From Lentzea waywayandensis (lineage in GTDB: Bacteria > Actinomycetota > Actinomycetes > Mycobacteriales > Pseudonocardiaceae), in contig NZ_FOYL01000018.1 of the NCBI RefSeq assembly GCF_900115955.1, positions 1-64,000 on the forward strand: a stretch of 64,000 bases of DNA. The letters run 5' to 3'. The translations under genes and the position numbers were made by a program. A model generated the notes under the pieces. That model was not told the DNA's origin, made no database searches, and saw nothing but the letters and a program-made list of their open reading frames with translations. Positions 45,103 to 47,242 of this stretch are shown piece by piece. Every line of letters starts with the position of its first letter. Position 1 is the first letter of the stretch.

Positions 45103-45693
45103 ATGCCCACGACGACCCTGCACTGGCTCTCGGAAGCCGACGACCACCTCCGCACCGAGATCCACGCAGTCGTGCACGACGTGGTAGCGGCAGGCGGCGC
45201 GGTCGGCTACCACGAACCGCCAACCCACGAACGCATCTCGACCTGGCTGGACACCGTCCTGAAACAGGTCCGCGAAGGTGACGCAGCCTTCGCCGTCGCA
45301 CTCGTCGACGGCGTGGTGCGCGCCGTGGGCCTGTGGCGCCGAGGCTCGACCGCCGTCTTCCAGCACCGAGCCGAAATCCAGCAGATCATGGCCCACCCTT
45401 CGGCCCGCGGCCTGGGCCTCGGCAAGCTGGTGATGGAGGGCTTGATCGCCAACGCCCGCGAGCAGGCCGTCGAGATCCTCTCGCTAGGCGTGCGCGGCAA
45501 CAACCACGGCGCCATCGAACTCTACGAGTCCTTGGGCTTCCGGGAATGCGGCCGCATGCCGAACGCGATCGCCGTAGGAACCGAGCGCTGGGACGACGTG
45601 TGGATGTACCTGCCGCTCGGCTACCCGGAGGGCACGTCACTGAACGGCGCGGCGGCGGGTGGACTGGGCGGCAGCCCACGACGAGGAGCCTGA
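45103..45693 (+). CDS. GNAT family N-acetyltransferase
   Basis: 196 aa from ATG 45103. Acetyl-CoA loop ARGLGLGKLVMEGLI and C-terminal GAIELYESLGFRECGRMP are GNAT motifs A and B. The C-terminus ends in a glycine-rich tail. Divergent from the ABC exporter, with which it may be co-regulated as a resistance function (inference). Confidence 0.9.
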   Translation: MPTTTLHWLSEADDHLRTEIHAVVHDVVAAGGAVGYHEPPTHERISTWLDTVLKQVREGDAAFAVALVDGVVRAVGLWRRGSTAVFQHRAEIQQIMAHPSARGLGLGKLVMEGLIANAREQAVEILSLGVRGNNHGAIELYESLGFRECGRMPNAIAVGTERWDDVWMYLPLGYPEGTSLNGAAAGGLGGSPRRGA

Positions 45694-45794
45694 TCCAGCC
45701 CGCGAAGCCGAAGTCGAGCAGTCAGAGCGCGCAATCACGGCAAACGCCGCCCACCCGCGATGCCGAAGGCGAGCCGTCCTTACCGTGCGGTCTG

Positions 45795-45938
45795 GGTGGG
45801 GTGGTTTCGTCACGAGTCGTGCCACAGCTCTTGCTGCATGCAAGGAGGGGTGTCAACTCGACACGCTTTTCGTCGAGTTGACACCCCTCCTTGCATGTGG
45901 CCCGCTCTTGGCTCGGCTCGTGACGAAACCACCCCACC
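45795..45938. repeat. 144-bp near-palindromic hairpin element
   Basis: Outer arms 45795-45816 and 45917-45938 are perfect 22-bp inverted repeats (core GGTTTCGTCACGAG). Inner arms 45837-45862 and 45872-45897 are perfect 26-bp inverted repeats (core AGGAGGGGTGTCAACTCGAC) around the 9-base loop ACGCTTTTC. Between the arms 20 and 19 bases are mostly unpaired. Sits between convergent genes in a 471-bp gap with no gene of its own. Could be a REP/MITE-like mobile hairpin or a strong bidirectional terminator. Confidence 0.9.
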
Positions 45939-46037
45939 AACGCAACCACCAAAGCAACGCGCCTCCGCCCAAAGCACCAGGCGTGCCATCAACCCACGCA
46001 CGGCGTAGGCCCCGGTTTTGGATCAGATTGGCGGGGT

Positions 46038-46054
46038 CTGGGGCGGAGCCCCAG
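46038..46054. repeat. Small GC hairpin
   Basis: CTGGGG-CGGAG-CCCCAG, a 6-bp stem with a 5-base loop, of a kind scattered through actinobacterial intergenic DNA. About 110 bases past the stop of the convergent hypothetical gene; the rest of 45939-46164 shows nothing recognisable. Confidence 0.55.
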
Positions 46055-46164
46055 GAAGCAGCGCAACCTGAACGCCCGCAACCCAACCACCTACGGACTC
46101 GCAACGCGCACCCGCCAACGAAACAGGGGGACGACCCACGCAACGACCGCGCACGCCGAAGGCG

Positions 46165-46692
46165 TCACACCCGATCAGGCCGAACCACAATGACGCTGAC
46201 CGTGTAATCCCCCCAAAGCGTGGTGTGGATCAACATCCGAGAGTCCAAGGACAACGCCGAAAACTCAGGAACCCAAAGCTCCCGGCCGTCCTCCTCGAAC
46301 AACCACCCCCGCAACTGCCCGCAAGCACCACCGGCAACGGACAGGCCTACTTCTCCGTCCCCCACCCGGCCCGACAACCGAACCCGAGCCCACCGGGGCT
46401 CCCCATCGACAGCACCGGGATCCCGCAAATCAACACAGAGCAGAAACTCACGCCGCTCATCGAAGAGCTCGTACGAGGTGGCCATCCGCCACCACTCGGC
46501 GTTGATCCGGGAAACGAACTCAGGGTCGTCGATGCTGACCGCGGACGAGTCGAAGCGCCCATGCTCACGCAGGCTGGAGGCGGCGCCACGATCAGGCGGC
46601 GTGGGCAGCTCAGGCTGCTGTTCCCACAGCCCGAGGAACACGAGTCCCGCTCTGGCGAGATCGTCAGCAAGCTCGGCTTCAGTCAACGGCAC
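46165..46692 (-). CDS. Uncharacterised protein
   Basis: 175 aa. Soluble, slightly acidic, with high third-position GC consistent with coding. Readable landmarks: ELADDLARAGLVFLGLWEQQ at the start and RELWVPEFSALSLDS near the end. No family recognised. Lies about 90 bases downstream of ndk's convergent partner region, on the same strand as ndk; possibly cotranscribed past it only if ndk lacks a terminator. Confidence 0.6.
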   Translation of the reverse strand: MPLTEAELADDLARAGLVFLGLWEQQPELPTPPDRGAASSLREHGRFDSSAVSIDDPEFVSRINAEWWRMATSYELFDERREFLLCVDLRDPGAVDGEPRWARVRLSGRVGDGEVGLSVAGGACGQLRGWLFEEDGRELWVPEFSALSLDSRMLIHTTLWGDYTVSVIVVRPDRV

Positions 46693-46780: not shown

Positions 46781-47191
46781 TCAGAGGTTCGGGAACCAGA
46801 TCTTGATCTCGCGCTCCGCCGACTCGGCCGAGTCCGACCCGTGCACCAGGTTGTACTGGACCTCGGTCCCGAAGTCGCCACGAATCGTGCCGGGCGTCGC
46901 CTTCTCGATGGGGTCGGTCCCACCGGCGAGCTGACGGAAGGCCGGGATCGCCCGGACACCCTCCACCACGATGGCAACGAGCGGCCCACCGGTGATGAAG
47001 TCGACGAGGTCGCCGTAGAACGACTTGCCGTCGTGCTCCGCGTAGTGCTGCTCAGCGGTGGCGCGGTCGGCGGTGCGCAGCTCCAGGGCGGCGAGCTTGA
47101 GGCCCTTGCGCTCGATGCGGGCGATCACCTCGCCAACGAGACCACGGGCAACGCCATCGGGCTTAACGAGAACCAGGGTGCGCTCGGACAC
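46781..47191 (-). CDS. ndk: Nucleoside diphosphate kinase
   Basis: 136 aa from GTG 47191 with AAGGAG ten bases upstream; the longer open frame runs through repeats and is not used. [13 protein letters not shown], catalytic His in [12 protein letters not shown], and the EREIKIWFP end are diagnostic. Balances NTP pools. Neighbour of rne in mycobacteria too, though further away here. Confidence 0.97.
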
Positions 47192-47242
47192 GACGGTGTG
47201 ACTCCTTGAAGAACAGGTACGGGATGTGGGCAACAGGGTAGC

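What the first reader, a model, noticed from the sequence alone, without database searches (positions are those of the whole stretch)
45795..45938. 144-bp near-perfect palindrome of unknown type between convergent genes
Two nested perfect inverted repeats (22 and 26 bp) make 48 base pairs of stem, far more than an intrinsic terminator needs. No transposase, att site or known RNA explains it. It may be a dispersed REP/MITE-like element or a structure that stalls replication or transcription.
Basis: seen in the sequence. Interest (0 to 1): 0.75.

Follow-up and report, generated by a model that had tools for sequence, protein, structure and literature searches.

The report
Replication-oriented giant-hairpin repeat in Lentzea
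The palindrome is one of about 35 copies, in this genome, of a non-coding DNA element that can fold into a very long hairpin; the two arms change together as the element evolves, and most copies face the same way relative to chromosome replication.

Summary
In detail: 45795-45938 is a 144-nt near-perfect palindrome (22- and 26-bp perfect arms; fold z-score -16). It is not unique. It is the core of a ~310-345-bp unit (about 45755-46100) with 37 full-length places (at least 35 distinct copies) in this genome. BLAST finds the unit in 22 of 23 other genomes of the genus (inferred: Lentzea) and in 0 of 36 outside it. Across 68 palindromes 98.2% of pair cells pair and 41 of 62 pairs change on both sides. 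Between nearest stems, double Watson-Crick changes outnumber single changes 100:25, suggesting arm-templated correction. Copies evolve in concert. They face against the replication fork at 25 of 27 mapped sites here and 17 of 20 in a complete relative. A covariance model finds similar palindromes in other genera; 33 of 34 that I read have the same kind of loop on mostly unrelated stems. I found no target-duplication signal, RAYT, Rfam family, phage or plasmid match. Best reading: a resident hairpin-forming repeat maintained at DNA level through replication and conversion. Function and partner protein are unknown.

The parts
45755..45784 (+). left tag of the repeat unit (ends GAGCCGTCCTTACC), containing a GCCGAAGGC mini-hairpin
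   Evidence: conserved in 33 of 34 aligned copies by eye, L037 being the exception; left limit of similarity near here
45795..45816 (+). outer 5' arm, 22 nt perfect
   Evidence: a few haplotypes that covary with the 3' arm
45817..45836 (+). 5' side of the conserved asymmetric middle region
   Evidence: 84% mean pairwise identity against 58% for the inner arm; pairs through G-U in the + sense
45837..45862 (+). inner 5' arm, 26 nt perfect, with the conserved GTCAA
45863..45871 (+). apical loop ACGCTTTTC
   Evidence: with the GTCAA columns 98% identical across 68 palindromes; same type of loop in 33 of 34 palindromes read from G023 and four other genera
45872..45897 (+). inner 3' arm
45898..45916 (+). 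3' side of the asymmetric middle region
   Evidence: 82% identity
45917..45938 (+). outer 3' arm, 22 nt perfect
45939..46075 (+). conserved right half (CA-rich; AGGCGTGCCATCAACC and GATCAGATTG blocks)
   Evidence: 37 matches in the genome, 20 in complete genome G001; 12 of those 20 have no full palindrome
46038..46054 (+). short hairpin CTGGGGCGGAGCCCCAG near the right end
   Evidence: pairs with both-side changes in the consensus fold
45103..45693 (+). flanking GNAT acetyltransferase gene, used to find the orthologous site in 23 relatives
46781..47194 (-). flanking nucleoside diphosphate kinase gene (start approximate)
   Evidence: Pfam NDK

Best explanation
A copy of a resident interspersed non-coding repeat whose core can extrude as a very long hairpin. 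SHOWN: multicopy unit, strict arm covariation, conserved apex and asymmetric middle, concerted evolution, copies with internal deletions, and orientation mostly against the replication fork. INFERRED, most likely: the arms are kept complementary mainly by arm-templated correction at DNA level (template switching between the arms during replication, or repair of the extruded hairpin), and copies are further homogenised by gene conversion between loci. The apex and asymmetric middle are held by selection, presumably as the binding site of a cellular factor acting on the folded strand. GUESSED: the polarity exists because the better-folding strand is kept off the lagging-strand template, where hairpins provoke deletion, or because template switching is commoner on the leading strand.
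For: 37 full-length places, each scoring 42-58 bits better in this sense than in reverse. 68 distinct palindromes: 98.2% of cells paired, 41/62 pairs with both-side changes, 0/500 shuffles as high. Inner 26 pairs: 1726 Watson-Crick cells, 19 G-U (18 at one boundary pair), 7 A-C, 8 other, so wobble intermediates do not build up. Spanning tree of 44 inner stems: 100 double changes to 25 single; 60:15 on the shortest edges. Template switching as a source of instantaneous compensatory change, and its leading-strand bias in E. coli, are in print (PMC8794818, abstract and passages). At seven shared sites the best paralogue in the same genome is always closer than the orthologue. Polarity 25/27, and 17/20 in G001. 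The + strand folds more stably in 62 of 68 with DNA parameters. Apex 98% identical, inner arm 58%. In other genera and the deep relative G023, 33 of 34 palindromes keep the loop type and 32 of 34 the GTCAAG/CTTGAC below it.
Against: Very strict purifying selection on an RNA or cruciform could also give mostly double changes. The G-U pairs of the middle region fit selection on a + strand RNA. If arm correction were purely mutational, the asymmetric middle should have been corrected too. 14 of 44 inner stems have at least one non-Watson-Crick pair, and L147 is a mismatched chimera. In genus g48 the 12 scored copies of G109 lie on both strands, and in all 8 of them that I folded the other strand folds better, so neither polarity nor strand preference is universal. 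The polarity exceptions are L008, L009 and three copies in G001. No binding factor is identified. The cited paper itself calls the evidence for template switching in maintaining short stems circumstantial.
Confidence: 0.5

Rival explanations
1. A structured non-coding RNA or 3'-UTR element: the + strand is transcribed, often from the upstream gene, and the giant hairpin protects, processes or sequesters RNA; the covariation is ordinary RNA selection.
For: The middle region pairs with G-U on the + strand (152 G-U against 4 A-C cells; outer helix 50 against 2); + strand folds better in 65 of 68 with RNA parameters; the left neighbour points towards the element on the same strand in 24 of 36 copies by a rough gene caller; further conserved hairpins.
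Against: Inner stem almost free of G-U; no Rfam family at gathering score in 8 loci; no sigma-70-like promoter in 45500-46400; orientation follows the fork (25/27) more than the mapped neighbouring genes do (17/27 co-directional).
Confidence: 0.25
2. A bidirectional transcription terminator or insulator between convergent genes, which must fold on both strands and therefore tolerates no G-U.
For: This copy lies between convergent genes; 12 of 30 typed copies are convergent and 2 divergent; Watson-Crick arms suit folding on both strands; a small terminator-like site (5-pair stem plus GCTTTTCG) lies in the apex at 45850-45864, + strand.
Against: 16 of 30 typed copies lie between tandem genes; no U-rich tail was reported after the full hairpin, and three weak sites against 1.7 expected is no excess; the long conserved right half and the fork polarity are unexplained.
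Confidence: 0.1
3. A miniature mobile element moved as single-stranded DNA at the fork (IS200/IS605- or REP-like), which would give orientation relative to replication.
For: Dispersed, non-coding, hairpin-bearing, mostly fork-polar; Y1 transposases act on the lagging-strand template (PMC6006769, passages).
Against: One Y1_Tnp domain found, IS200-like, apparently not intact, on a contig whose only copy is a truncated one 0.9 Mb away; no target-duplication signal (such elements make none, so this is weak); at least seven sites shared with another species, so much of the family is inherited in place; fuzzy right boundary.
Confidence: 0.12
4. An attC-like hairpin recombination site.
For: Variable complementary arms with conserved unpaired bases and strand polarity (resemblance recalled, not tested).
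Against: Copies are scattered singly, and those I could place lie by core genes; attC end motifs and integrases were not searched for.
Confidence: 0.03

Closest known systems
ERIC and other intergenic palindromic repeats
   Same: dispersed, intergenic, palindromic, tens of copies (features of ERIC recalled; passages on such repeats in PMC3116915)
   Different: much longer stem, extreme both-side covariation, apex shared across genera, fork polarity; no sequence comparison with ERIC was run
REP/REPIN with RAYT transposase
   Same: extragenic hairpins, several subfamilies per genome
   Different: no RAYT found; unit far longer than the 20-60 bp of a REP (PMC3116915, passage)
Template-switch-maintained hairpins (PMC8794818)
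   Same: apparently instantaneous compensatory changes that keep stems perfect
   Different: that work concerns RNA genes; here a dispersed DNA repeat with 62 pairs
IS200/IS605-derived miniature elements
   Same: hairpins, orientation bias expected
   Different: no intact transposase or defined ends found

Membership tests
MITE | terminal inverted repeats at the very ends of the unit | tested here: not met
   similarity runs about 40 bp left and 130-170 bp right of the palindrome
MITE | target-site duplication | tested here: inconclusive
   35 copies: longest shared flank match 5.63 nt on average, 5.92 between different copies; right end not sharply defined
MITE | related autonomous transposon in the genome | tested here: inconclusive
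   one arm pattern, up to 2 mismatches: 32 arm matches in 16 known copies and 8 single hits elsewhere (reversed-pattern control 3) whose surroundings were not read; the second arm type was not searched
REP/RAYT | RAYT gene flanked by the repeats | tested here: not met
   PF01797 gives one IS200-like hit, not flanked by copies
Known RNA family (Rfam 15) | match at gathering score | tested here: not met
   8 loci, no match; below threshold only microRNA models and mcr7 sRNA, e.g. 63.7 bits against a cut-off of 268
Intrinsic terminator | hairpin followed by U-rich tail | tested here: not met
   three weak sites reported, shuffles 1.7; one is a 5-pair stem inside the apex, none follows the full stem
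Interspersed intergenic palindromic repeat (broad class) | dispersed, multicopy, extragenic, palindromic | tested here: met
   one truncated copy overlaps a called gene
Integron attC | cassette array and integrase | not tested
   neither was searched for

The most novel reading that the evidence does not exclude
A class of chromosomal DNA hairpin elements in Pseudonocardiaceae that carries a conserved apex (GTCAA...ACGCTTTTC...TTGAC) on freely changing arms, is rewritten arm-from-arm by template switching at replication forks, and in Lentzea is deployed with polarity against fork movement: a self-maintaining structural DNA element with a role in replication or chromosome maintenance.
Probability: 0.25. 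Interest if true: 0.82.

Novelty: new variant of a known kind. Interest (0 to 1): 0.62.

Why it matters
How perfect helices stay perfect through evolution is an old question; template switching is a proposed answer whose evidence for maintenance is, in its authors' words, circumstantial (PMC8794818). Here dozens of parallel 62-pair hairpins per genome, with few wobble intermediates, shared sites and many copies with deletions, give a natural experiment to separate selection from templated correction. The fork polarity and the cross-genus apex point to an unknown factor acting on folded DNA or RNA. Such palindromes may also break assemblies: many matches in G003 begin within a few hundred bases of a contig end.

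Tried and rejected
Unique terminator: rejected, multicopy. RAYT-driven REP: rejected for lack of a RAYT. Phage or plasmid origin: no BLAST match in either collection; one apex pattern of another genus gave nothing in viral contigs; the Lentzea pattern was not scanned there. Known RNA: none. Generic hairpin apex: the apex motif occurs in a hairpin only once in the 64-kb window; two short free-standing hairpins with a similar apex exist elsewhere in the genome. Coding sequence: not tested formally; the covarying arms argue against it. Target duplications: no signal. Deletion junctions: of 15 deletion variants, the four with at least 89% match to a full copy share 1-3 nt at the junction, little more than chance; the other 11 fits are too poor to judge. 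Literature listings that showed nothing on this element: Lentzea + palindrom, the four-term ERIC search, the apex string (10 of 18 listed), intergenic repeat + compensatory mutations, Pseudonocardiaceae + repetitive + palindromic + intergenic. Papers: PMC8794818 abstract and passages; PMC3116915 and PMC6006769 passages; others only as listings.

Limits: the tool scores only part of its first-look candidates (12 to 150 per genome), so copy numbers in relatives are lower bounds; the list of 20 right halves in G001 is not complete either (a further remnant at its GNAT site, L168, was not in it). The gene callers use codon usage only and miss genes. Rows dropped: from 92 long HMM hits, 68 distinct palindromes were kept (duplicates, four without a readable loop, and L056 removed); the spanning tree also dropped rows with a gap in the stem. 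Fork mapping used 27 of 35 distinct full copies; 8 were not mapped. It assumes that G001 is circular with the terminus opposite dnaA; if linear, one copy (9.78 Mb) changes side.

Full report
OBSERVATION. The palindrome is real and at the stated place: perfect outer arms of 22 nt, perfect inner arms of 26 nt, a 9-nt loop, and between the two helices an asymmetric region that pairs partly. It heads the inverted repeats of the window and folds 16 standard deviations better than shuffles.

EXTENT AND COPY NUMBER. BLAST of 164 nt against the own genome gives many near-full-length matches, most at 80-98% identity. A covariance model of the palindrome finds 37 full-length places, three of which (on contigs C5, C7 and C10) look like one copy, plus one truncated copy and two short partial hits. 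Comparing flanks shows that the conserved unit runs from a 30-bp left tag to about 130-170 bp right of the palindrome. Of 36 copies (one of them truncated), 30 could be typed with a rough caller: 12 between convergent, 16 between tandem and 2 between divergent genes.

DISTRIBUTION. In a sample of 60 genomes, the own genome and 22 of 23 others of the genus match at E <= 1e-5, and 0 of 36 outside it. The palindrome model, on 249 genomes of the family, hits 34 genomes in 10 of 46 genera at E <= 0.01; G003 was missed there although BLAST finds it, so the filter loses copies. I read 34 palindromes: 10 from G023 (same genus, not found by BLAST) and 24 from four other genera (g4, g36, g43, g48). Their outer stems are unrelated in sequence to those of the window; 33 of 34 have an ACGCTT(T/C)(T/C)C-type loop and 32 of 34 have GTCAAG/CTTGAC around it; the exceptions are G060 (slightly different loop) and two copies in G153. 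The five other genera gave only weak hits (best E 3e-4 to 3e-3) that I did not read. The model itself favours this apex, so its frequency is biased upward, but a match over loop and flanking stem in otherwise unrelated palindromes is not expected by chance.

COVARIATION. On 68 distinct palindromes, 98.2% of 4205 cells pair, 41 of 62 pairs have changes on both sides and 548 cells differ on both sides from the commonest pair; none of 500 shuffles reaches this, and sliding one side by 1-3 columns drops pairing to 34-46%. The tool warns that relatedness inflates such shuffles. The inner 26 pairs hold 1726 Watson-Crick cells, 19 G-U (18 at one boundary pair), 7 A-C and 8 others. A spanning tree over 44 distinct inner stems has 100 double Watson-Crick changes and 25 single ones, 60 and 15 on edges of at most three pairs; for the outer helix, 26 and 20. 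If the two members of a pair mutated independently, nearest relatives should differ mostly by single changes. So either one arm is corrected from the other, or selection is very strict on both strands. In contrast the middle region uses G-U in the + sense (152 G-U, 4 A-C) and so does the outer helix (50 against 2), so the + strand, as RNA or single-stranded DNA, is the one that folds best in Lentzea (65 of 68 with RNA, 62 of 68 with DNA parameters). In genus g48 it is the other strand: 8 of 8 G109 copies. Variation is modular: inner arm 58% mean identity, apex 98%, middle 82-84%.

HISTORY. At the GNAT-ndk site, of 24 genomes of the genus (this one included) 9 hold a palindrome (one partly masked by N), 8 a collapsed or partial copy (one cut by a contig end), and 7 show none (one because the contig ends); this is my reading. 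Seven sites beside the same gene are shared by the own genome and complete genome G001. Their right halves are 64-79% identical, close to non-orthologous between-genome pairs (medians 68-76%); the best paralogue within a genome is closer at all seven (83-100%), while the median G001 paralogue is closer at four of seven. That is concerted evolution, or repeated replacement at old sites. Copies lacking part or all of the palindrome are common in relatives; in G001, 12 of 20 right halves have no full palindrome.

ORIENTATION. In G001 dnaA lies at 2.90 Mb. All 8 full copies there, and 9 of 12 right-half remnants, have their sense strand pointing against fork movement (17 of 20, P = 0.0026). Neighbouring genes of 27 copies of the own genome, located in G001, place 25 of 27 against the fork (P = 5.6e-6), whereas 17 of 27 of the same genes are co-directional (Fisher P = 3e-5). 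One exception, beside recR, is shared by both genomes. Counting the seven shared sites once gives 36 of 40. Neighbours include secY, rho, ftsZ, dapB, ribosomal protein genes and recR (Pfam domains; gene names are my reading). All 27 map within about 2.8 Mb of the origin, but mapping favours core genes; in G001 one of 20 lies beyond 3.2 Mb. The unit and its surroundings are CA-rich on the sense strand, so polarity could be tied to strand composition. In G109 the 12 scored copies lie on both strands (its origin was not located).

MECHANISM. I favour a resident hairpin repeat kept perfect by DNA-templated correction and homogenised between loci, with apex and middle recognised by an unidentified factor. 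Template switching is a published source of instantaneous compensatory change and of perfect stems, and is stated there to be commoner on the leading strand in E. coli (PMC8794818, abstract and passages). Correction, factor and reason for polarity are inferred. Rivals are listed with their evidence.

STATUS. As a dispersed intergenic palindromic repeat it belongs to a known broad kind; size, arm behaviour, cross-genus apex and polarity make it a distinct variant. I found no description in the searches named in Tried and rejected, which cover only open-licence papers.

Noticed in passing
L039:3043-3079 and L040:3053-3091 (contigs C20, C27 of the genome): free-standing short hairpins with nearly the same apex as the giant palindrome, without the rest of the unit
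   Followed up: partly
L220, L221, L222 (genus g43) and L231-L252 (genus g48): near the first palindrome there are further conserved blocks; in L220-L222 a second perfect hairpin with the same loop but GCAAG instead of GTCAAG
   Followed up: partly
L054, L165, L170 and other relatives: contig ends or runs of N fall within or next to the palindrome, as expected if it disturbs assembly
   Followed up: no
window 45699-45779 and many relatives: the left-tag motif GCGAAGCCGAAGGCGAGC recurs alone and in tandem, also in a form with exchanged mini-hairpin arms (GGCGAAGCC)
   Followed up: partly
L147:2763-2906: a palindrome with mismatched arms (18 of 26 inner pairs intact), probably a chimera of two variants
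   Followed up: partly
L043:1480-1962 (contig C24): the only Y1 transposase domain found in the genome, IS200-like, profile matched only to position 99 of 121
   Followed up: partly
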